Shown here one piece after another: positions 32,173-63,755 of a DNA stretch of 64,000 nt (its first letter is position 1; every line of letters starts with the position of its first letter). The translations under genes and the position numbers were made by a program. Source of the DNA: an uncultured bacterium (GTDB taxonomy: Bacteria > Bacillota_I > Bacilli_A > RFN20 > CAG-826); contig CASDRB010000005.1 of assembly GCA_949283025.1 (NCBI GenBank), positions 128,347 through 192,346 of the forward strand. Direction: 5' to 3'. A model generated the notes under the pieces. It worked only from the letters and a program-made list of their open reading frames with translations. It had not been told where the DNA came from and did not search any database.

Positions 32173-32248
32173 TGGTGGCCCAAGCCGGGATTGAACCGGC
32201 GACACAAGGATTTTCAGTCCTTTGCTCTACCAACTGAGCTACCGGGCC
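32173..32248 (-). tRNA. tRNA-Phe (GAA)
   Basis: The minus strand forms a cloverleaf: GGCCCGG acceptor, anticodon stem AAGGA/TCCTT around CTGAAAA (anticodon GAA), T arm GCCGG/CCGGC with loop TTCAATC, and encoded CCA. It is 13 bases downstream of tRNA-Asp. Confidence 0.95.
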
Positions 32249-32261
32249 ATTTAATAAAAAA

Positions 32262-32337
32262 TGGCGGATCATACGGGAATCGAACCCGTGGTCTTCTCCG
32301 TGACAGGGAGACATGTTAACCGCTACACCAATGATCC
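32262..32337 (-). tRNA. tRNA-Asp (GTC)
   Basis: Acceptor GGATCAT/ATGATCC, anticodon stem TCTCC/GGAGA around CTGTCAC (anticodon GTC), T loop TTCGATT, discriminator G and encoded CCA. It is first in a two-tRNA transcript with tRNA-Phe. Confidence 0.95.
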
Positions 32338-36243: not shown

Positions 36244-36320
36244 TGGTTGCGGAGGGAGGATTTGAACCTCCGACCTCCGGGTTATGGGCCCGACGAGCTA
36301 CCGAACTGCTCTACTCCGCG
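36244..36320 (-). tRNA. Initiator tRNA-fMet (CAT) with C33
   Basis: Cloverleaf with CGCGGAG at the 5' side and CTCCGCA at the 3' side, so C1 does not pair with A72, the initiator mark. The anticodon stem has three G-C pairs (GGG/CCC). The loop is CCCATAA, with anticodon CAT. The base before the anticodon is C33 in place of the almost universal U33. The T loop is TTCAAAT and CCA is encoded. It is downstream of rpsU. Confidence 0.92.
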
Positions 36321-42912: not shown

Positions 42913-43002
42913 TGGCGGAGATGTAGAGATTCGAACTCTAGCGGGCTATTCACCCCTATCGGTTTTCAAGACCAACCCCTTCAACCACTTGGGTACATCT
43001 CC
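42913..43002 (-). tRNA. tRNA-Ser (TGA)
   Basis: A 90-base class II tRNA with a long variable arm. The anticodon loop is CTTGAAA (anticodon TGA), acceptor GGAGATG with discriminator G, encoded CCA. Last of seven tRNAs in the minus-strand cluster. Confidence 0.94.
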
Positions 43003-43005
43003 AAT

Positions 43006-43081
43006 TGGTGGACCGTCCAGGACTTGAACCCGGAACCAACCGGTTATGAGCCGGTAGCTCTAACCATTGAGCTAACGGTCC
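43006..43081 (-). tRNA. tRNA with anticodon CAT, probably tRNA-Ile2 (lysidine-modified)
   Basis: Acceptor GGACCGT, anticodon stem ACCGG/CCGGT around CTCATAA, encoded CCA. The sequence GGACC...CGGCTCATAACCG resembles known tRNA-Ile(k2CAU), and the elongator tRNA-Met is the next gene. TilS would convert C34 to lysidine; no tilS gene lies in this window. Confidence 0.8.
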
Positions 43082-43111
43082 AATTTATGTCACAATGGAT
43101 AAAATCTATTT

Positions 43112-43187
43112 TGGTGGCTGCGGGGGGACTCGGACCCTCGACCAATCGGGTATGAACCGAACGCTCTACCAACTGAGCTACACAGCC
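43112..43187 (-). tRNA. Elongator tRNA-Met (CAT) with abnormal T arm
   Basis: Acceptor GGCTGTG/CGCAGCC, anticodon stem TTCGG/CCGAT around TTCATAC, encoded CCA, discriminator A. The T loop reads TCCGAGT, so position 55 is C where U (made into pseudouridine by TruB) is almost universal. The T stem GAGGG/CCCCC also has an A-C mismatch. The rest matches elongator tRNA-Met. Confidence 0.9.
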
Positions 43188-43194
43188 ATCTCTA

Positions 43195-43270
43195 TGGTGG
43201 AGCTAAAGAGATTCGAACTCTCGACCCCCTGAATGCAAATCAGGTGCTCTCCCAGCTGAGCTATAGCCCC
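43195..43270 (-). tRNA. tRNA-Ala (TGC)
   Basis: Acceptor GGGGCTA/TAGCTCC with the G3-U70 pair that marks alanine. Anticodon stem CCTGA/TCAGG around TTTGCAT (anticodon TGC). Encoded CCA. Confidence 0.95.
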
Positions 43271-43284
43271 ATTACTTTAAAAAA

Positions 43285-43361
43285 TGGTCGGGATGGCAGG
43301 ATTCGAACCTGTGACCCTCTGCTCCCAAAGCAGATGCACTACCAAGCTGTGCTACATCCCG
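43285..43361 (-). tRNA. tRNA-Pro (TGG)
   Basis: Acceptor CGGGATG/CATCCCG, anticodon stem TCTGC/GCAGA around TTTGGGA (anticodon TGG), encoded CCA. Confidence 0.95.
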
Positions 43362-43370
43362 ACTTACTTA

Positions 43371-43447
43371 TGGCGCGCCTAACAGGACTCGAACCTGTAA
43401 CCCTCAGATTCGTAGTCTGATACTCTATCCAATTGAGCTATAGGCGC
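43371..43447 (-). tRNA. tRNA-Arg (ACG)
   Basis: Acceptor GCGCCTA/TAGGCGC, anticodon stem TCAGA/TCTGA around CTACGAA (anticodon ACG, A34 probably deaminated to inosine), discriminator G, encoded CCA. Confidence 0.95.
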
Positions 43448-43467
43448 AACTAAGGGTGCTTGTATAA

Positions 43468-43488
43468 TATATAACAAATTGTTATATA
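43468..43488 (-). promoter_or_regulatory. Palindrome with internal promoter between tRNA-Cys and tRNA-Arg
   Basis: TATATAACAA and TTGTTATATA form 10-bp arms around one base. A -35 TTGAAG lies just upstream on the minus strand, and TATATT at 17 bases overlaps the palindrome. It may be a second promoter for the tRNA cluster, or a simple terminator-like hairpin. Confidence 0.35.
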
Positions 43489-43506
43489 CTTCAAGTTTTT
43501 TTTACT

Positions 43507-43581
43507 TGGAGGTTCCTACCGGATTTGAACCGATGATCATTGAGTTGCAGTCAATTGCCTTACCAGCTTGGCTAAGGAACC
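43507..43581 (-). tRNA. tRNA-Cys (GCA)
   Basis: Acceptor GGTTCCT with the U73 discriminator typical of cysteine, anticodon stem ATTGA/TCAAT around CTGCAAC (anticodon GCA), T loop TTCAAAT, encoded CCA. First tRNA of the cluster, which reads Cys, Arg, Pro, Ala, Met, Ile2, Ser. Confidence 0.94.
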
Positions 43582-44993: not shown

Positions 44994-47012
44994 TTACATC
45001 TGTTGATCATTATTTTGTCTTCTTAATTTTCTCAAACGCTTATTTAATTTTTTGTTTATATAAAAATATAAGAAAGTCGTTAATAATCCGCCAACCAAAA
45101 CACAAAATACGACAATCATCCAAACTTCAATGTCATTAGCTTTAAAATCTTCCCACATTTTGACAACATAGGTGTTGTTAGCACCAAAATCAGCCATAAC
45201 GACACAACGATCCATTGTTTTTTCATCAGGGAATTGGCAATAAAATTGTCGACCAACTCCATTGATAACATTGCCATCTTCATCTTTTGCATAATAGTCA
45301 TATGCATAAAAAACCATATCGTTGTATTGAGAATCAAAGTTATCGTCGTTTGAATTAGTGTATTCACTTAATGTTCCATCAAAAAAGTAAGATAAATCGA
45401 CAACATCCCATTCAGGATCAATAATAAGTAAACCATTATATGTATATGGTTGATTATTCTCCATAACATAAGGATAAATATCGTAGCGAGTCCAATCTTC
45501 CATGCTGGACTCATCATAAGTTAGCAAAACGCAATTTTCTTCGTCGTATCCATATTGGCCTTGCTCATTTTCAATTGCGTAATATAATTCAACATCATCA
45601 TAATTAGGATCGCTATCTTTTTGAAAATGGACATCTTCGTACCACACTTCTGTATAAACGCCATCTTCTAGATAAAATAATGAATACCATTCATCGTTTT
45701 CCTCGTCGTAATTATAAATTAAATCTGTGCGAGCATCGTACCAATCTTTCATTAAATCCAACATTGAATCACCGCCAATAAAAGGCGTATATCCAATATA
45801 ATTTGTATTTTGAGCAGCATTGATAGGATCAGAGATAAAATCTAAAAATAGCAAAGCTAATGTCTCTTGCATTTCACTTCTTGCATCGTCTTTTGGCATG
45901 CACCAACCATCAAACCAAATATTTGCGACAGTGGTCGGAACAGCATAATGAAGACCAAATCCATATTCAATGCCGTTTTCATCATTATACGCATCGGCTA
46001 AATCCATAGAATAAACAGCATCGCCGCTCCATGCGGTATTGATACCAACCTTACCTGTGACGATATCTTGTTTTCCAGAATCTACTTCTAAGCCAAAGAT
46101 ATTTTGTTTTAATTCTTTCAATTTTTCTAAAACTTTATCAGTGGTTTTTGGATCGGATTGATTTAACAAATGAGAAATCTGTTCGTTGTATTGTTTGGCG
46201 TCAATTTCATGATTAACAAATTGATTCCCTAATTGAATCAATGGCTCTCTTTCTACTTCCGCTAAACCGATAAAATAAGTATCGCGAACCGAATCTTTAA
46301 TAGATATTCCGCCATAGTATTTAGGGTTCCACAAATTCGCCCAATCAGACATATCTTTTAACATTTGATAAGGAGAAAAATCTTCATCTCTATCCATGTA
46401 TAATTGAAACTCTGGATTAAAAATAATCCCTAATGTTCCCCACATGTATCCAACAGCATAATCGCTGACTTTGTGCTGCACCGCTTTCCCATCGATGTTG
46501 GTTTCAGCAGTGATGCTTTCCAAATATTCAATTAATTTTGGCGAAGCATAATCTTGATAATTGTTTAATCCTAGATCAAGCATTTTGTCGCTAATTTTTA
46601 CTAATGAATCAGATGCCATTAATTTTTGAATTCCATAATCAGAAGGGCAAATCAAATCAAATTTAGCTTTTCCTGTCGCTAATTCATTTAACATCGTTTC
46701 ATTTGTATCGGTAGTAGAGTATTCAACACTAATAGAAACGCCATAAACATCTTGAATATAATCGACGAATTGATCAGTTAAATCTTTTTCATAATATCCA
46801 TTGTCCGGATCATTTAAATAGATATAATCTTCCCAGTTTAATAAGCGCAAAACTTTATCGCCTTTTAAACTTTTTAAATCAATTTTTGATTTATCGATTG
46901 CTTTTTTATGATAGTTTGGTGCCTTTATATCAGTTTTTACATAATTTGTAGCGCCAAAAGGAATTGCTAAAGAAAATGATAAAGTCATCAATAATAAAGA
47001 TTTGTAATTCAT
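44994..47012 (-). CDS. potD: Spermidine/putrescine ABC transporter substrate-binding protein, extended, membrane-anchored
   Basis: PotD binds extracellular polyamine and delivers it to PotBC. The motif LRLLNWEDYI near residues 55-64, LICPSDYGIQ, AWSGDAVYSM and FIGGD-like segments fit PotD. At 672 residues it is nearly twice the usual 350. About 150 extra, acidic, Tyr-rich residues lie between about 430 and 590. The C-terminus ends in a membrane helix (about 630-652) and a basic tail, in place of an N-terminal lipobox. It is the last gene of potABCD and would be tethered to the membrane at its C-terminus. Confidence 0.85.
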   Translation of the reverse strand: MNYKSLLLMTLSFSLAIPFGATNYVKTDIKAPNYHKKAIDKSKIDLKSLKGDKVLRLLNWEDYIYLNDPDNGYYEKDLTDQFVDYIQDVYGVSISVEYSTTDTNETMLNELATGKAKFDLICPSDYGIQKLMASDSLVKISDKMLDLGLNNYQDYASPKLIEYLESITAETNIDGKAVQHKVSDYAVGYMWGTLGIIFNPEFQLYMDRDEDFSPYQMLKDMSDWANLWNPKYYGGISIKDSVRDTYFIGLAEVEREPLIQLGNQFVNHEIDAKQYNEQISHLLNQSDPKTTDKVLEKLKELKQNIFGLEVDSGKQDIVTGKVGINTAWSGDAVYSMDLADAYNDENGIEYGFGLHYAVPTTVANIWFDGWCMPKDDARSEMQETLALLFLDFISDPINAAQNTNYIGYTPFIGGDSMLDLMKDWYDARTDLIYNYDEENDEWYSLFYLEDGVYTEVWYEDVHFQKDSDPNYDDVELYYAIENEQGQYGYDEENCVLLTYDESSMEDWTRYDIYPYVMENNQPYTYNGLLIIDPEWDVVDLSYFFDGTLSEYTNSNDDNFDSQYNDMVFYAYDYYAKDEDGNVINGVGRQFYCQFPDEKTMDRCVVMADFGANNTYVVKMWEDFKANDIEVWMIVVFCVLVGGLLTTFLYFYINKKLNKRLRKLRRQNNDQQM

Positions 47013-47839
47013 TAACCAACCCTCCCTTGTGCGTGTGTTTTTTTATGTTTGCTTTGATAATATTGATAAGCTGTAATACCAATGACAGCAATGACAACAC
47101 AACCAAAAATAATTGTAGTTAATGCTCTCATTTCTGGTGGAACTGGCCATCGTTTAATCGTTTTTTGAATCAATGTTGACAATGTTTCAAAACTTGATTC
47201 TTTGGTAAACATAGTAATGATAAAATCATCCAAAGATAATGTTATTGCTAACAAGAATCCAGATAAAATACCAGGTAATATTTCAGGTATCATCACCTTT
47301 CGTAAGGCTCTTGAAGGCGTGCAACCTAAATCTAATGCCGCTTCATATAATGCAGGATCCATTTGTTGCAGTTTGGGCTTGACCGAAATATAAACAAAAG
47401 GAACGCATAAGACACAATGCCCAATTAACAAAGTCCAAAAAGAAAATAATTGAGTATGGAAAACATAATCTTGTAAGAACACAAATAAAACAGTTAGAGA
47501 TAATGCCATAACAATTTCGGCATTGACGATTGGAATTTGAGTAACATTATCAAAAGCCTTGCGCCAGCCTTTTTTTAAATAAAACGCTCCAATTGCTCCA
47601 CTAGTTCCTAAAATAGTTGATACAATTGCGGCAGATAAAGCTAATAAAACTGTATTTCCTAATGCAGTCATAATCGCTTTATTTTTAAATAAAGCTGAAT
47701 ACAAATCAAATGTGAAGCCACTCCATTGTCCAACATATGTTGCGCTTGTAAAAGAAAAAGCAATGAGAATCAAAACTGGCAAATACATAAAAATTAAAAT
47801 GAGCCAAATATAAGTTTGACCAAAAATCTTTTTTACCAT
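47012..47839 (-). CDS. potC: Spermidine/putrescine ABC transporter permease PotC
   Basis: The 275-residue permease has six membrane helices and the MetI-type ABC permease motif EAALDLGCTPSRALRKVMIPEI (EAA loop) that docks with PotA. It overlaps potB upstream by seven bases and potD downstream by one. The order potA-potB-potC-potD supports the assignment over other permeases of the family. Confidence 0.93.
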   Translation of the reverse strand: MVKKIFGQTYIWLILIFMYLPVLILIAFSFTSATYVGQWSGFTFDLYSALFKNKAIMTALGNTVLLALSAAIVSTILGTSGAIGAFYLKKGWRKAFDNVTQIPIVNAEIVMALSLTVLFVFLQDYVFHTQLFSFWTLLIGHCVLCVPFVYISVKPKLQQMDPALYEAALDLGCTPSRALRKVMIPEILPGILSGFLLAITLSLDDFIITMFTKESSFETLSTLIQKTIKRWPVPPEMRALTTIIFGCVVIAVIGITAYQYYQSKHKKTHAQGRVG

Positions 47840-48675
47840 AATCCAGACCCCCTTCCTTGTTCTTTTTCAACGCCCCTTGTTAAAAACATTGAAATACCAA
47901 CGATGACCAACATAATTAACGCCATGAATGAGCCATCATTCCACATAGCTTGCGAAAAATCTAAATAAATATAATTGCCAAACAATGTGATTTTTCCTTC
48001 CGATAATAAATCGGAAATTACATAACTTGACATTGTTGGCATAAATGTCATTAAGACAGCTGAAATAATGCCAGGAATTGTTTGTGGAAAAATAGATTTT
48101 GTAAAAACTTGAAAAGGATTGGCGCCTAAGTCAGCTGCTGCTTCGATTTGAGACTTATCCAATTTAAGCATAGTTGTGTATAATGGCAAAATAACAAAGG
48201 GCAAATAATTGTAAACCATACCAATTAATGTTGCTAAATATGGGTGATTCCCGCCATTGATGCCCAACCAAGTCAGCAAATCTCTTGTCGCGCCAGTTCT
48301 CAAGACGAAGTTTATCCACATAGGTGCGATAAACAATGTTACTAGCACAGCGTTTTTATTAATTTTTTTATCAGCCAAAAAATAAGCTAAAGGATATCCT
48401 ATTAACAAACAAATAAGCGTCGTTAATAAAGCGATGAATATTGAAACAAATAATACATTTATTTTTGTCCATGTCGTGAAAAAGTTCACTAATGATTCAA
48501 AAGAGAAATATCCATTTGTATCAGTAAAAGCATAAAAGACAATTAATAAAATAGGAATGATGATGAATAAAACCAAAAATACACCATAAGGAATACAAAG
48601 ATTTTTTCTTTTTAAAGCAAATAAACTAAACTTTTTTAAAGTTGTTGCCCCACTATTGGATTTCATATTTATCAA
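47833..48675 (-). CDS. potB: Spermidine/putrescine ABC transporter permease PotB
   Basis: The 280-residue permease has six membrane helices and the EAA loop ([20 protein letters not shown]). It pairs with PotC to form the channel. It overlaps potA by 23 bases from the first ATG (14 if the MKSNSG start is used). Confidence 0.92.
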
Positions 48676-50212
48676 TCGATCCTTTTAAAGTTAATTTGAT
48701 GTCTTTTGGTAAAACATTTATCGAAACAATGTCGTTTTCATTCCATGAATAATCAGTTTCAACAACGAAGTCTTCCTCTTCTTGACTTCTAACTAAAACT
48801 TGATAATGGTCGCCTTTATAAACGATAGAAATAATTTCGCCTTTATTTTCATCATTTTCAGGATTGTGGTCTAAAATCTCAATTTTATCCAAATTAATTT
48901 CAGCGATGACGTCAGCGTCATTCAAATCATATTTTTTGCCTTCTTTAGAAATTAAATAACCATCATCATCTAATGAAGAACCAGGAAGCAATTGTGTTAA
49001 ATCGCATTCAAAAACACAATCTGAAATGACCAAACGATTGTTTTTGTCAATCCAAGCATCGGTGAAGACGTTTTTAGTAAGTTCTTTTTTCATAATATGA
49101 ATCTCATCGGGACCAATGCTCATTAAAACAACATCATCGATATTAAATTCTTTTGTATCTTGAACAACAATTTCGTTTTTGCCCTTCATAATTACATATT
49201 CGTAATGTATGCCTTTAAAAACTTTAGAAACAATAATGCCAATTAATTTATCAGCATATTTTTCCTTAATTTCAGGTGTAATTTTTTTATCTTTACCGAT
49301 TCGTTTTAATTCAACATCTTCAGGTCTGACGACAACATCGACTTTTTCATTGGTAGGGAAATCGTCGACACATTTAAATGTCGTTCCTAAAAATCTTACC
49401 AATTTTTTACCCATCATCGTCGCATTGTAAATATTTGATTCACCAATAAAATTCGCAACATATGCATTGGCAGGTTCATTATAAATATCACTAGGAGTGC
49501 CAACTTGTTGGATTTGACCAGCTTTCATGACAACAATAGTGTCAGACATAGTCAAGGCTTCTTCTTGGTCGTGAGTGACATAAATAAAAGTGATACCTAA
49601 TTTTCGATGCATCTCTTTTAATTCAAGTTGCATTTCTTTTCTCATCTTTAAATCAAGAGCGCCCAAAGGTTCATCCAAAAGTAATATTTCTGGCTCATTA
49701 ACAATAGCACGAGCAATAGCCACGCGTTGTTGTTGACCTCCAGATAATGTGGAAATATCGCGGTCTTCCAATTCTTCTAAGTCGACAATTTTTAAAGCTT
49801 TTGCTACTTTTTCATCGATGACTTTAGAAGACAATTTTTTCATTTTAATTACTTCTTCACCATTTCTTTTTTTCACCTTGACAGGTACTTTTTTGAGCTT
49901 CAATCCGAATGCTACATTGTCATATACATCAAGATGCGGAAATAAAGCGTAGCGTTGAAAGACGGTATTGACCGGTCTTTTATATGGGGGGAGTTTAGTA
50001 ATATCCTGCCCATTTAACAAAATTTGACCTTCATTGGGAACTTCAAACCCCGCAATCATTCTTAACGTGGTAGTTTTCCCGCAGCCAGAAGGCCCTAAAA
50101 AAGTGACAAATTCACCTTTTGTGACGTCCAAATTAAAATCATCGACAACCGTTACGCCATCGTACACTTTTGAAACGTTTTGTAACGATATGATTTTTAC
50201 TGAATCATCCAT
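48653..50212 (-). CDS. potA: Spermidine/putrescine ABC transporter ATP-binding protein PotA, with duplicated C-terminal domain
   Basis: PotA powers polyamine import. The ATPase has GPSGCGKTT (Walker A), [15 protein letters not shown] and [11 protein letters not shown] chose ATG 50212, with AAAGGGGAT upstream, over 50251. At 519 residues it is much longer than usual PotA (about 370). After the normal TOBE domain, a similar unit appears twice: [20 protein letters not shown] and [19 protein letters not shown]. This C-terminal region binds ligands or controls activity in related ATPases, so the copy may add regulation. Confidence 0.92.
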
Positions 50213-50253
50213 CGCAAAATCCCCTTTCATGTTTAAAAATTTATAACGCAAAA

Positions 50254-59483: not shown

Positions 59484-60194
59484 TTAAATCTCCTTATATT
59501 TTAATTGACTTGCAAAAACAACTTTATCATCTACTTTGCCGACAATATAAGATGTTGTGTCTAGGCTATTTATATATAAATCTAATTTTTCTTTTTCTTT
59601 TACTTCGTGCATGTATTCTATATGCAATGATTGAATTTGATGCTTTTTATAAAAGTCTGAATCGAATACATTTAAAATATATTCAATATAACAAGTGTTA
59701 TTCATGTGACCATTAACGTCACAATCAGTATATTTAATAATATTGGATTCTTTAAAAGTTAATGGGGCATCGATATTTATTTTTTTAGGTAACGGCAAAT
59801 CATCATCAAATTTTTGATATGGTATATCTAATGATACATCGGCAATGTTTCTTGTTTTAGCATCTATTAATGCCCAAATAGAAACCAATTTTATAATGGC
59901 TTTGCCATTTTTATCAATTATTTTAGCGTACCGAGGATAAATAATGCGCATCGTTTTATGAGGATAAGTCATTATTTCTACCGTTTCTTGATAATCAGGA
60001 AGACGATCAAATTCGACATACGCTCTTGATACGACCCACATCAAGTTATGCTCTTGACCGTATGATTTGCCAATATGCAAAGATTCGCAATCAAAAACCG
60101 CAGCATCTTGAAACATTTTAAAAAAAGATGATATTTTTAATTTTGAAAGACAATCAGCATCACTACAATTGATAAACACTTTTTGTTTATACAT
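59484..60194 (-). CDS. Acyl-ACP thioesterase (hotdog fold)
   Basis: The 236-residue protein has two hotdog segments. The N-terminal DAAVFDCESLHIG with WVVSRAYVEFDRLP, and the second SNIIKYTDCDVNGHMNNTCYIEY, match acyl-ACP thioesterases that release fatty acids from acyl carrier protein. It may end or trim fatty acid synthesis. It follows aguB by one base, and is followed by the GH3 gene, so the operon mixes polyamine and general metabolism. Confidence 0.85.
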   Translation of the reverse strand: MYKQKVFINCSDADCLSKLKISSFFKMFQDAAVFDCESLHIGKSYGQEHNLMWVVSRAYVEFDRLPDYQETVEIMTYPHKTMRIIYPRYAKIIDKNGKAIIKLVSIWALIDAKTRNIADVSLDIPYQKFDDDLPLPKKINIDAPLTFKESNIIKYTDCDVNGHMNNTCYIEYILNVFDSDFYKKHQIQSLHIEYMHEVKEKEKLDLYINSLDTTSYIVGKVDDKVVFASQLKYKEI

Positions 60195-60195
60195 A

Positions 60196-61071
60196 TTATT
60201 TGTCCTTTTTAATAGCGCTCAATTTGCAAATATCATGATATAAATCAACTCTACGATCTCTAAAAACTCCCCAATTAACTCTTTCTTTATTAATATCATC
60301 TAAATCAAATTCAGCAATGATAAACCCTTCTGAATCTCTATCCATTTCTTTAATCTTATTACCATAGTAATCACTAATAAAAGATGATCCAAAAAAGGTC
60401 ATAGAAGAATCATCTTGAATCTCGGTACCAATTCGATTGGAAGCAATGACAGGAATAATATTAGCGGCACTATGGCCAAGCATTGTGTTTTGCCAATGAG
60501 CCTTGCTATCTTTTGGCAAAACTGGTTCGCTGCCAATCGCAGTTGGATAAAATAATAATTCTGCTCCTTGTAAAGTCATTATTCTTGCCGCTTCAGGAAA
60601 CCACTGATCCCAACAAATTCCGACTCCAATAATCCCATATTTAGTGTTAAAAGTTTTAAATCCGGTATCACCAGGAGAAAAATAAAATTTTTCTTCATAA
60701 CATTGGCCAGTAGGAATATGAGATTTTCGATATAAATCAATAATTGTTCCATCAGCGTCAATAACAACTAATGAATTAAAATAAGCATTGCCATCTTTTT
60801 CAAAAAAAGAAATCGGAAGAACAACTTGCAATTCTTTAGCTAATTTTTGAAAATGCTTTATCGTAGAAGAATTATTTAATTCTTCAGCCAAATCAAACAA
60901 CTCATATTTTTCAGTTTGGCAAAAATAAGTAGTTTCAAATAATTCTTGTAGCAAAATGATATTAGCGCCTGCATGATGGGCTTTTCTTATCAGTTCAGTT
61001 GCTTTATCTATATTTTCTTTTTTGTTTGAACAACACGCCATTTGAGTTGCCGCTACTTTGACTAAACGCAT
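60196..61071 (-). CDS. aguB: N-carbamoylputrescine amidohydrolase
   Basis: AguB hydrolyses N-carbamoylputrescine to putrescine, CO2 and ammonia. The nitrilase triad is clear: E43 in LLQELFETTYF, K116 in DLYRKSHIPTG and C153 in GICWDQWFPE. The FETTYF and SHIPTG segments are typical of AguB over other nitrilases. Length (291) is usual. It is one base from the ADC-AguA fusion gene, which makes its substrate, so the pair forms a complete route from arginine to putrescine. Confidence 0.95.
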   Translation of the reverse strand: MRLVKVAATQMACCSNKKENIDKATELIRKAHHAGANIILLQELFETTYFCQTEKYELFDLAEELNNSSTIKHFQKLAKELQVVLPISFFEKDGNAYFNSLVVIDADGTIIDLYRKSHIPTGQCYEEKFYFSPGDTGFKTFNTKYGIIGVGICWDQWFPEAARIMTLQGAELLFYPTAIGSEPVLPKDSKAHWQNTMLGHSAANIIPVIASNRIGTEIQDDSSMTFFGSSFISDYYGNKIKEMDRDSEGFIIAEFDLDDINKERVNWGVFRDRRVDLYHDICKLSAIKKDK

Positions 61072-63686
61072 TATTTTTTTCCTCCTTTAGGAACTTGCAT
61101 CGTTATGCAATGAATATTTCCACCACCTAATAAAATTTCTTTAGAATAAATTTGTATGACATCTTTATCTTTAAATACTTCTTTAAATAATTTAAAAGCC
61201 GCTTGGTCTTCTTTAACGCCAAAAGCTGGCATAATTACAAAATCTTTCCCTTGATAAAAATTAACATAACTCGGCAATAAATCATCTCCAGCTTGTCTTA
61301 ATTTGGCACTATGTTTATCAATTTTTATTCCATTTGCCTCTTTTTTATTCATCAATAAACCTTGTGGGTTTTTTATTTTAATAATTTCTAATTTGCGACC
61401 TTGTGCATCTTTGATCGAACTCAAAATCTTAAAAGCTTTTTGACAAGCGGCATATTGTTTTTTATCACTGGTTGGCGCCCACGCTAGCATCACTTGTCCA
61501 GGTTTTGTAAACGCCACAAAATTATCAATATGTTCATTGGTTTCATCGCCAATAATTCCATTAGGAAGCCAAATAATTTCACTGACATTTAAATTGATCT
61601 TTAAAATTTCTTCAATTTCAGATTTATTGTATTGAGGGTTTCGTCCTTTGGATAATAAGCAAGCTTCAGTTACAATTAACGTTCCTTGGCCATCGCAAGC
61701 AATCGAACCGCCTTCTAAAACAAAATTTGAAAGATAATATGATTCCATCTTTAATTTTTTTGTTAAAGCTTTTCCTAAATTATCATCGTCTTGATAATCA
61801 TCATATAGACCATCATAGCTGCCACCCCATGCATTGAATCTAAAATCGACGCTTCTAATATCTCCTTGATCATTTTTTACAAAAATCAAAGTATTATCTC
61901 TCGCCCAAGAATCGTTATATTTAACTTTAATAGGCCAAATATTATCAATCGTGTTAATTTGAGGCAAAACTTTATTGTAAATGCTAGGGTCAATACCTAC
62001 CATCACCGTTTCATATTTAGAAATAGCGTTGATAATATTTATATATTCATTTAAAGCATTTCTAGCTTTATTTCTCCAAACATCTTTTCGATAAGGAAGC
62101 AAAATAATCGTATAATCATGCTCGTCACCTTCAAATGGCAAATAATATCCATCACCTCGCGGTGTTGTTTTTCGCTTAGTGACATAGTCATTTAATCTTT
62201 TTTGATAATTAGAAAATTTTCGCCATTTTCTTTCATCAATTATATCGATTTGATGAGTGTTAACATGATTGCATAAAACTGTGCAATCTTTGCTCAAACC
62301 ATCTTTAATTTGAGCAACGATATCTTTAGTGATAACTTCACCAGGCAAAACAATAGGAATACCTGGAGGATAAATCATGACACTTTCCTTGCAAATATGA
62401 TTTATTGCATCATCTAAATCTACGGTTTTTAAAGGAGCAAAATAAGCTGTTCGTGGTCTTAATAACATATATCCGTATTCAAAATTAAAACTGTGAGTAG
62501 GATATTGACGATTTTTCTTAAAATGGTCTTTTGAAATACTTTTTAAAGCCCTGACTAAATTATCGATATGCGCTTTAGTATTTCCTAAGGCTAAAATACA
62601 TAAAATAACATATGTCTCCGCTAATTCGATTTGAATGTGATATTTAGTCTTTAATAAGCGATAAACCTCATACCCATTTAAATCTAAGCGATCTAATTCA
62701 ATCAATAATTTAGTTTTATCATAATTAAATGAGCCTCTAGCTTTAAAATAATCTTTCCCTCTTGGAATAAACCCATCAATTTTTGATATTTCATTAAAAG
62801 CGTATTCACTTAAAGAAATAATGTTTTTTACACTTTGTTTACCATTGTCTTCCATCCATGCTCTTGCCGCATCTAAACTACCCAATAATAAAGATGATGG
62901 AGATGTCGTATTAATCAAGTTTAATGTTTCTTGAACTTTAATTGGCGACACGCGATCACCTTTTAATAATAAAACCGAAGATTGAGTTAAAGAACCACCA
63001 GTCTTATGAAAAGAAACTGCCGAAATATCAGCATCGGCATCCATGGCGGTCATAGGATTTTCATTTGAAAAATAATAATGGGCACCATGAGCTTCATCAA
63101 CGATGACAATCATATTTCTTTCATGGGCCATCTTTACTAACTCTTTTAAATCGATGATTACGCCAAAATATGTCGGGTTAATTACCACTATCGCTTTAGC
63201 AGATGGGTAGCGAATCATCGCTTTTTTATAATCATTTAAAGTTGGTTGATTAGCAATTTCAATATTAGTATCAATATCAGGGTTAATATAAATTGGAATA
63301 GCTCCCGACAATACCAAAGAATTAGTAATTGATTTATGGACATTTCTTGGCAAAATAATTTTATCATCAGGGCGACAAATAGTTAAAACCGCCGCTTGTA
63401 AACCTGCGGTTGTTCCATTGATTAAAAAGAAACTATAATCGGCATGGCAAGCCTTAGCCATCAATTCCATCGATTCTTTTAAAACGCCATTAGGATGAGC
63501 TAAATTATCCAAACCAATCGGAGCGTTAACATCGCATTTATAAACCTGATGACCGATTAATTCGCTCATTTGATTTTTGATATTTCCCATGTGGTGACCA
63601 GGCACATCAAAAGGAGATATACCTTCATTAACATATTGTTTTAAAGCGTCCACAAACGGGGTTTTGGCTTTTTCATTTTCACTCAT
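61071..63686 (-). CDS. Arginine decarboxylase fused to agmatine deiminase
   Basis: Numbered from the MSENEK start (871 residues). Residues 1 to about 490 are a fold-type I PLP decarboxylase of the SpeA/Orn-Lys-Arg family, with VDEAHGAHYYF and the PLP lysine (K228) in SFHKTGGSLTQSS. Residues about 507-871 are agmatine deiminase, with TPRGDGYYLPFEG, NDSWARDNTLIFV, FNAWGGSYDGLYDD, GDETNEHIDNF and the catalytic cysteine in GGGNIHCITM (C860). The two normally separate enzymes would convert arginine to agmatine and then to N-carbamoylputrescine without release. I chose ATG 63686, because the earlier ATG at 63698 overlaps the -10 box. AguB follows. Confidence 0.88.
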   Translation of the reverse strand: MSENEKAKTPFVDALKQYVNEGISPFDVPGHHMGNIKNQMSELIGHQVYKCDVNAPIGLDNLAHPNGVLKESMELMAKACHADYSFFLINGTTAGLQAAVLTICRPDDKIILPRNVHKSITNSLVLSGAIPIYINPDIDTNIEIANQPTLNDYKKAMIRYPSAKAIVVINPTYFGVIIDLKELVKMAHERNMIVIVDEAHGAHYYFSNENPMTAMDADADISAVSFHKTGGSLTQSSVLLLKGDRVSPIKVQETLNLINTTSPSSLLLGSLDAARAWMEDNGKQSVKNIISLSEYAFNEISKIDGFIPRGKDYFKARGSFNYDKTKLLIELDRLDLNGYEVYRLLKTKYHIQIELAETYVILCILALGNTKAHIDNLVRALKSISKDHFKKNRQYPTHSFNFEYGYMLLRPRTAYFAPLKTVDLDDAINHICKESVMIYPPGIPIVLPGEVITKDIVAQIKDGLSKDCTVLCNHVNTHQIDIIDERKWRKFSNYQKRLNDYVTKRKTTPRGDGYYLPFEGDEHDYTIILLPYRKDVWRNKARNALNEYINIINAISKYETVMVGIDPSIYNKVLPQINTIDNIWPIKVKYNDSWARDNTLIFVKNDQGDIRSVDFRFNAWGGSYDGLYDDYQDDDNLGKALTKKLKMESYYLSNFVLEGGSIACDGQGTLIVTEACLLSKGRNPQYNKSEIEEILKINLNVSEIIWLPNGIIGDETNEHIDNFVAFTKPGQVMLAWAPTSDKKQYAACQKAFKILSSIKDAQGRKLEIIKIKNPQGLLMNKKEANGIKIDKHSAKLRQAGDDLLPSYVNFYQGKDFVIMPAFGVKEDQAAFKLFKEVFKDKDVIQIYSKEILLGGGNIHCITMQVPKGGKK

Positions 63687-63696
63687 ACTAAAAAAC

Positions 63697-63724
63697 ATTA
63701 TAAATATAATGACGCTAATATCAA
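63697..63724 (-). promoter_or_regulatory. Promoter of the polyamine operon
   Basis: TTGATA (63719-63724), 16 bases and TATAAT (63697-63702) face the fusion gene. The start codon is ten bases from the -10 box, so the leader is at most a few bases. No Shine-Dalgarno sequence is seen. Confidence 0.6.
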
Positions 63725-63728
63725 GAAT

Positions 63729-63755
63729 AAAAAAGGACTAGAGCAAAACTAGTCC
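63729..63755 (-). terminator. Terminator of the gene at the window end
   Basis: On the minus strand a 7-bp stem (GGACTAG/CTAGTCC) with a seven-base loop is followed by six T, about 25 bases after the stop codon at 63781. Confidence 0.85.

What the first reader, a model, noticed from the sequence alone, without database searches (positions are those of the whole stretch)
61071..63686. One polypeptide carries arginine decarboxylase and agmatine deiminase
The N-terminal half has all SpeA-type marks (PLP lysine in SFHKTGGS) and the C-terminal half all agmatine deiminase marks (catalytic Cys in GGGNIHC). These are normally two proteins. The fusion would pass agmatine straight to the deiminase. I know of no description of this fusion, but could not search.
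Basis: partly seen in the sequence, partly recalled or inferred. Interest (0 to 1): 0.8.

Follow-up and report, generated by a model that had tools for sequence, protein, structure and literature searches.

The report
Fused arginine decarboxylase and agmatine deiminase
One bacterial gene encodes a single protein holding two enzymes that are normally separate; it is predicted to turn arginine into N-carbamoylputrescine in two steps, which the enzyme of the next gene would likely finish to putrescine, a common cell polyamine.

Summary
One ORF (61071-63686, minus strand; 871 aa) carries a complete SpeA-type (ancestral AAT-fold) decarboxylase followed by a complete agmatine deiminase, joined by a short predicted helix. 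It is not an error: 20 of 395 sampled genomes of the class and 40 of 146 of the family hold it as one open frame, and the 120 listed database relatives (54-99% identity) carry both domains. The PLP lysine and the deiminase Cys, His and Asp residues are unchanged in 121 of 121. N-carbamoylputrescine amidase (aguB) follows directly in 20 of 20 fused loci. Six unfused relatives keep the gene order as overlapping genes. In the window's family, 10 of 10 checked genomes with the decarboxylase alone carry an agmatinase-like gene and no true aguB; 20 of 20 fused genomes (18 of that family) show the reverse. Best reading: a two-step enzyme, arginine to N-carbamoylputrescine, feeding AguB. Activity, arginine specificity and direct agmatine transfer are untested. 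Eight full-text searches of an open-access library showed no description; the nearest published case is the fusobacterial ornithine decarboxylase-arginase fusion, whose hydrolase half is judged inactive. A new variant of a known kind, moderately interesting.

The parts
61071..63686 (-). Fused gene: SpeA-type decarboxylase + agmatine deiminase, 871 aa from the likely start (ORF is open from 63698, 875 aa)
   Evidence: recurs as one frame in 40 of 146 family genomes
62223..63686 (-). Decarboxylase half (residues 5-492): OKR_DC_1 13-316 and OKR_DC_1_C 423-459; no N-terminal receiver domain
   Evidence: Foldseek match to 2x3l, TM 0.70 by target length, rmsd 9.6
63003..63005 (-). Codon of the PLP lysine K232 in SFHKTGGS (role recalled from the family)
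   Evidence: unchanged in 121 of 121 sequences
62175..62222 (-). Predicted helix 493-508 that joins the two halves; the deiminase match starts at residue 510-511
   Evidence: model m90655d4688cc; domain limits
61086..62168 (-). Agmatine deiminase half (residues 511-871)
   Evidence: TIGR03380 393.0 bits, cut-off 381.8; Foldseek 3h7c, TM 0.94 by target length, 40% identity
61107..61109 (-). Codon of the catalytic Cys864 in GGGNIHC (aligned with Cys357 of the E. faecalis enzyme; role recalled)
   Evidence: alignment; unchanged in 121 of 121
61524..61532 (-). Codons 723-725, with His723 and Asp725 (aligned with His218 and Asp220 of the E. faecalis enzyme)
   Evidence: alignment; His and Asp unchanged in 121 of 121
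61896..61898 (-). Codon of Asp601 (aligned with Asp96 of the E. faecalis enzyme)
   Evidence: alignment; unchanged in 121 of 121
63697..63724 (-). Promoter-like site TTGATA-16-TATAAT, 11 of 12, ending 10 nt before the ATG at 63686 (would give a nearly leaderless mRNA)
   Evidence: consensus match only; 36 such sites found in the region, 27.3 expected
63735..63755 (-). Terminator-like hairpin that separates the fused gene from the region upstream
   Evidence: pattern match only
60196..61071 (-). aguB, N-carbamoylputrescine amidase, next gene, overlapping the fused gene's stop codon by 1 nt
   Evidence: TIGR03381 445 bits, cut-off 410.25; directly downstream in 20 of 20 fused loci
59484..60194 (-). 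Acyl-ACP thioesterase gene, next in the likely operon; no known link to the pathway
   Evidence: PF01643 and PF20791

Best explanation
The gene encodes one polypeptide with a complete SpeA-type decarboxylase and a complete agmatine deiminase, which is predicted to convert arginine via agmatine to N-carbamoylputrescine, likely for putrescine synthesis. Shown here: the single frame, both domain families, the invariant catalytic residues, the recurrence across genomes, and aguB as the next gene. Inferred: the decarboxylase half likely takes imported arginine (no full argininosuccinate synthase gene was found) and makes agmatine with PLP; the deiminase half on the same chain likely removes ammonia; AguB likely removes the carbamoyl group, leaving putrescine as the likely end of the pathway, because no S-adenosylmethionine decarboxylase or carboxynorspermidine decarboxylase gene was found. 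The benefit of the fusion is likely a fixed 1:1 dose and a short path for agmatine; true channelling is untested.
For: Domains and cut-offs. Catalytic residues unchanged in 121 of 121 (the window's protein and the 120 listed relatives, one of which is its own 99% cluster); the same residues in 20 of 20 fused loci and 6 of 6 adjacent-gene loci. Fold of both halves. Neighbour aguB in 20 of 20 fused loci, gaps -56 to +14 nt by first-start ORFs. Unfused relatives with order decarboxylase-aguA-aguB in 6 of 6. One OKR_DC_1 protein in each of the 20 fused genomes. Agmatinase/arginase family PF00491 in 0 of 20 fused genomes and 0 of 6 adjacent-gene genomes, but in 10 of 10 family genomes with the decarboxylase alone (10 of the 13 such genomes seen); aguB the other way round, 26 of 26 at 373-455 bits (16 above the cut-off) against 0 of 10 at more than 48 bits. 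Two of the ten agmatinase-like proteins were scanned: 169.8 and 172.2 bits for TIGR01230 agmatinase (cut-off 174.3) and 98-101 for arginase. SpeD found in 0 of 29; nspC in 0 of 20 fused. The two Bacilli enzymes assayed in PMC8503589 (section 7 read) showed activity with arginine only.
Against: No activity data. Ancestral AAT-fold decarboxylases also include ornithine and lysine enzymes, and the C. botulinum genome pairs an ornithine-specific one with separate AIH and NCPAH genes (PMC8503589), so gene context alone can mislead. The deiminase half scores below the cut-off of the stricter model PRK13551 (402.9 against 483), aguB is slightly below its cut-off in 10 of 26 genomes, and both scanned agmatinase-like proteins are just below theirs. 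The contrast with agmatinase comes from two genera of one family, not from independent events. Partial PF01564 matches (24.7-38.9 bits over about 60-95 of 186 positions) exceed that family's cut-off in 6 of 20 fused genomes, so an unusual aminopropyltransferase is not fully excluded.
Confidence: 0.8

Rival explanations
1. The halves work independently: the fusion only fixes dose and co-folding, and agmatine is released and taken up again from solution.
For: Six relatives keep the two genes as separate, overlapping, presumably co-translated genes with the same order, so fusion is not needed for the pathway. The model has pTM 0.67, so no fixed facing of the two active sites is indicated.
Against: The join is short (helix 493-508, deiminase from 510-511) and shows no length change in the 35 rows printed, which would suit a defined arrangement; this is weak evidence.
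Confidence: 0.5
2. The decarboxylase half prefers ornithine or lysine, and the deiminase half handles agmatine taken up from outside.
For: Such specificities exist in this family, including in a genome that also encodes AIH and NCPAH (PMC8503589, first part of Results read).
Against: Physical fusion to the deiminase; sister decarboxylases in the same family pair with an agmatinase-like gene; the two Bacilli members assayed in PMC8503589 section 7 use arginine only.
Confidence: 0.1
3. The pathway mainly serves arginine catabolism, nitrogen release or acid tolerance, with putrescine exported.
For: Each arginine would yield two CO2 and two NH3 (established chemistry); no full argininosuccinate synthase was found in fused genomes, so arginine is likely taken up.
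Against: The amidase AguB, not a carbamoyltransferase, is next door, so no ATP would be recovered (established chemistry of the two routes); none of the six genes scanned downstream looks like an antiporter, one of them having no Pfam match.
Confidence: 0.12
4. Artefact: two genes joined by a sequencing or assembly error.
For: None found.
Against: One frame in 20 of 395 and 40 of 146 genomes and in the 120 listed relatives.
Confidence: 0.005

Closest known systems
Fusobacteriaceae ancestral ornithine decarboxylase-arginase/agmatinase fusion (Fusobacterium nucleatum, PMC8503589)
   Same: The same kind of decarboxylase with a C-terminal hydrolase of a guanidine-compound family fused behind it
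   Different: The partner is arginase-like and judged unlikely to be active there (two metal-binding Asp replaced), and the decarboxylase uses ornithine; here the partner is an agmatine deiminase with the catalytic residues checked all kept
Ancestral AAT-fold arginine decarboxylase SpeA (Bacillus subtilis type)
   Same: Domain content, PLP site, lack of the N-terminal receiver domain
   Different: Stand-alone enzyme of about 490 aa (PMC8503589)
Agmatine deiminase AguA/AIH (E. faecalis 2jer, Arabidopsis 3h7c)
   Same: 36-40% identity in the Foldseek alignments, same Cys-His-Asp site
   Different: Stand-alone; E. faecalis has Gly217 before the catalytic His where this lineage has Glu
SpeD-SpeDC fusions (PMC10407285)
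   Same: A bifunctional polyamine-synthesis fusion
   Different: Two pyruvoyl decarboxylase homologues, other steps of the pathway

Membership tests
Ancestral-form AAT-fold arginine decarboxylase (SpeA) | OKR_DC_1 major domain and C-terminal domain | tested here: met
   224 and 30.8 bits, both above the Pfam cut-offs
Ancestral-form AAT-fold arginine decarboxylase (SpeA) | No N-terminal receiver (REC) domain | tested here: met
   The decarboxylase domain begins at residue 13
Ancestral-form AAT-fold arginine decarboxylase (SpeA) | PLP-binding lysine | tested here: met
   K232 in 121 of 121; its role is recalled from the family
Ancestral-form AAT-fold arginine decarboxylase (SpeA) | Preference for arginine over ornithine and lysine | not testable with these tools
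   Inferred from fusion partner, aguB and sister genomes
Agmatine deiminase (AguA) | Score above the curated equivalog cut-off | tested here: met
   TIGR03380 393.0 against 381.8; the subfamily model PRK13551 is not reached (402.9 against 483)
Agmatine deiminase (AguA) | Catalytic Cys, His and Asp residues | tested here: met
   C864, H723, D725, D601 in 121 of 121; correspondence to the E. faecalis residues from the alignment
Agmatine deiminase (AguA) | Hydrolysis of agmatine to N-carbamoylputrescine | not testable with these tools
   Needs an assay
Fusobacterial decarboxylase-arginase fusion | C-terminal arginase/agmatinase domain | tested here: not met
   The C-terminal domain is PAD_porph; no PF00491 match
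YaaO (EF-P-related paralogue) | Gene immediately upstream of tmk | tested here: not met
   Next genes are aguB and a thioesterase

The most novel reading that the evidence does not exclude
A lineage of small-genome Bacilli makes putrescine through a two-active-site enzyme in which agmatine never becomes a free pool: it passes within the fused chain or its oligomer from decarboxylase to deiminase. It would be the first arginine decarboxylase-agmatine deiminase fusion described, and a channelling enzyme for a bioactive amine.
Probability: 0.3. Interest if true: 0.65.

Novelty: new variant of a known kind. Interest (0 to 1): 0.45.

Why it matters
It is direct physical evidence that decarboxylase and deiminase belong to one pathway in these bacteria, so names such as 'lysine decarboxylase' or 'agmatine deiminase' given to some of these proteins each describe only one half. 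It offers a ready natural test of substrate transfer in polyamine synthesis, with overlapping unfused relatives as built-in controls. If agmatine is really kept on the enzyme, these bacteria would supply putrescine without supplying agmatine to their surroundings.

Tried and rejected
Sequencing or assembly artefact: rejected by recurrence. A fusion-specific change in the deiminase site: the Glu before the catalytic His (Glu722) is in 121 of 121 fused proteins, but also in 6 of 6 adjacent unfused relatives and in the separate deiminases L062, L063 and L064 (the separate ones in L065, L066, L068 and L069 have Gly), so it marks the lineage and not the fusion. Direction of change: I hoped the trees would say whether unfused relatives preceded the fusion or arose by splitting. 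The fused and adjacent rows are separated by one branch (support 80/76 and 92/80), but the root and the place of the two fused rows of another family (L014, L016) are open; in the deiminase tree, as drawn, the adjacent genes lie inside the fused ones. Not resolved. Spermidine synthesis: partial PF01564 matches (9 of 20 fused genomes at E up to 0.001, 6 above the cut-off) were looked at in one genome only (L070); I take that protein for methyltransferase-like by eye, without a family scan. SpeD and nspC were not found. The whole-collection scan of genome contigs found only 2 loci; I think because its patterns were stretches special to the query. A search for a paper joining agmatine deiminase with RF39 found nothing; an RF39-like placement of the organism is my guess and was not tested. 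Oligomer arrangement and the distance between active sites could not be computed (no model coordinates in the Python box). In one search a wrong (antisense) frame was picked for L010 and showed no catalytic residues; with the right frame all ten residues checked agree.

Full report
What is there. The minus strand carries one ORF, 61071-63698 (875 aa). Residues 13-316 and 423-459 match the Orn/Lys/Arg decarboxylase domains and 520-870 the agmatine deiminase family. By NCBI's curated models the second half is agmatine deiminase above the cut-off (TIGR03380, 393.0 against 381.8), while the stricter PRK13551 is not reached (402.9 against 483); the next gene, 60196-61071, is N-carbamoylputrescine amidase above its cut-off (445 against 410.25). 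That gene overlaps the stop codon of the fused gene by one base and is followed by an acyl-ACP thioesterase.

It is real and recurrent. The best 120 database relatives listed, of 3361 with E below 0.001, are 860-890 aa long and carry both Pfam domains, at 54-99% identity; one of them is the window's own 99% cluster, and the rest of the 3361 were not shown to me. Whole-genome searches found one open fused frame in 20 of 395 genomes sampled from the class (18 of the window's own family, 2 of another family), 20 of 392 in an overlapping sample drawn as phylum and 40 of 146 genomes of the family (in one of the 40, G572, the row notes a TGA inside the matched stretch beside an open frame of 885 aa; one more, G581, appears in two pieces on two contigs and is not counted). 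In 20 of 20 fused loci read, aguB lies directly downstream on the same strand.

Both halves look competent. In the alignment of the window's protein with those 120 relatives, the PLP lysine K232 and the deiminase residues D601, H723, D725 and C864 are unchanged in 121 of 121; the same holds for the 20 fused loci and the 6 adjacent-gene loci. The alignment with the E. faecalis enzyme (2jer) places the four deiminase residues at Asp96, His218, Asp220 and Cys357; that these are its catalytic residues is recalled. The predicted model (mean pLDDT 87.4, pTM 0.67) gives two normal folds: Foldseek matches the second half to plant and bacterial agmatine deiminases (3h7c TM 0.94 by target length, rmsd 1.6) and the first to AAT-fold basic amino acid decarboxylases (2x3l TM 0.70 by target length, rmsd 9.6; LdcI 3n75 TM 0.58, rmsd 4.6). 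Between them a predicted helix, 493-508, runs almost straight into the deiminase, whose match begins at residue 510-511. The pTM does not allow a statement on how the two halves face each other.

Relatives show the same genes unfused. Six loci (L021-L026, from two other families of the class) hold decarboxylase, deiminase and aguB as three successive genes, the first two overlapping by 8 to 29 bases in five loci (in L023 the listed first start gives a longer overlap and is probably too early). In trees of each half, fused and adjacent rows group together (99/97 in the decarboxylase tree; 100/99 in the deiminase tree, where the separate gene of L062 joins them) and one branch separates fused from adjacent (80/76 and 92/80). 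Whether the fusion came first and split, or arose from such neighbours, the trees do not decide.

Which substrate. This decarboxylase family contains arginine, ornithine and lysine enzymes (PMC8503589; outline with abstract, first part of Results, sections 7, 11 and 12, and passages read), so the label needs an argument. First, the partner acts on agmatine. Second, there is a contrast. Ten of ten genomes checked of the window's family that have the decarboxylase alone (of 13 such seen) carry a PF00491 agmatinase/arginase gene; 20 of 20 fused genomes and 6 of 6 adjacent-gene genomes do not. aguB runs the other way: 26 of 26 at 373-455 bits, 16 of them above the cut-off, against 0 of 10 above 48 bits. 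Of the ten PF00491 proteins I scanned two; both fit agmatinase (169.8 and 172.2 bits, just under the cut-off of 174.3) far better than arginase (98.4 and 101.1). So two exchangeable ways from agmatine to putrescine seem to be attached to sister decarboxylases (where five of the ten are in the tree). The ten genomes come from two genera and are not independent. Third, the two Bacilli members assayed in section 7 of that paper showed activity with arginine only.

Physiology. Each fused genome has one OKR_DC_1 protein. No full argininosuccinate synthase was found in 20 of 20 (weak or partial matches in G191, one of them at 27.7 bits above the cut-off of 27 over 68 of 162 positions, and in G184 and G171), so arginine is likely imported. 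SpeD was found in 0 of 29 genomes and nspC in 0 of 20 fused ones. PF01564 gave only partial matches, in 9 of 20 fused genomes, six above the cut-off. Putrescine is therefore the likely end of the pathway. The window also encodes a likely PotABCD polyamine importer at 44994-50251 (TIGR01187 361.8 against 355.6 for the ATPase; the permeases match PotB and PotC models below their cut-offs), so polyamines are probably both made and taken up.

What is known. Eight full-text searches of an open-access library returned no paper whose listing or passages that I saw describe this fusion. I read passages of three papers (PMC10407285, PMC8503589, PMC9992855) and sections of the second; the others I saw as listings only, and most subscription papers and preprints are not held. 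The nearest case is the Fusobacteriaceae ornithine decarboxylase-arginase fusion in PMC8503589, whose hydrolase is judged unlikely to be active. SpeD-SpeDC fusions (PMC10407285) are another bifunctional polyamine enzyme.

Verdict. The two-step enzyme is the best reading (0.8). Direct passage of agmatine remains open (about 0.3). As a fusion of two well-known consecutive enzymes it is a new variant of a known kind; its spread, intact sites and the exchange with agmatinase make it worth an assay.

Noticed in passing
window 44994-50251 (-): Likely polyamine importer operon: PotA-like ATPase of 532 aa (TIGR01187 above cut-off), PotB-like and PotC-like permeases (below the cut-offs), and a long, 672-aa PotD-like binding protein that matches solved spermidine/putrescine-binding proteins.
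   Followed up: partly
window 63686-63724 (-); L002, L004, L008 upstream of the fused gene: A -10-like box lies about 7-10 bases before the ATG (read by eye), so these mRNAs would be nearly leaderless, without room for a ribosome-binding site.
   Followed up: partly
window 61518-61550 (residues 717-727 of the fused protein): The deiminase lineage of these Bacilli has Glu instead of Gly just before the catalytic His (ETNEH against ETNGH), in fused and several unfused members; the effect is unknown.
   Followed up: partly
window 42916-43581 (-): Cluster of seven tRNA genes; three more lie at 32176-32337 (two) and 36247-36320.
   Followed up: no
L067 (G205) and rows G548, G563, G574, G583, G588: Six genomes of the same family that match only the deiminase half at the threshold used, not the decarboxylase half.
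   Followed up: no
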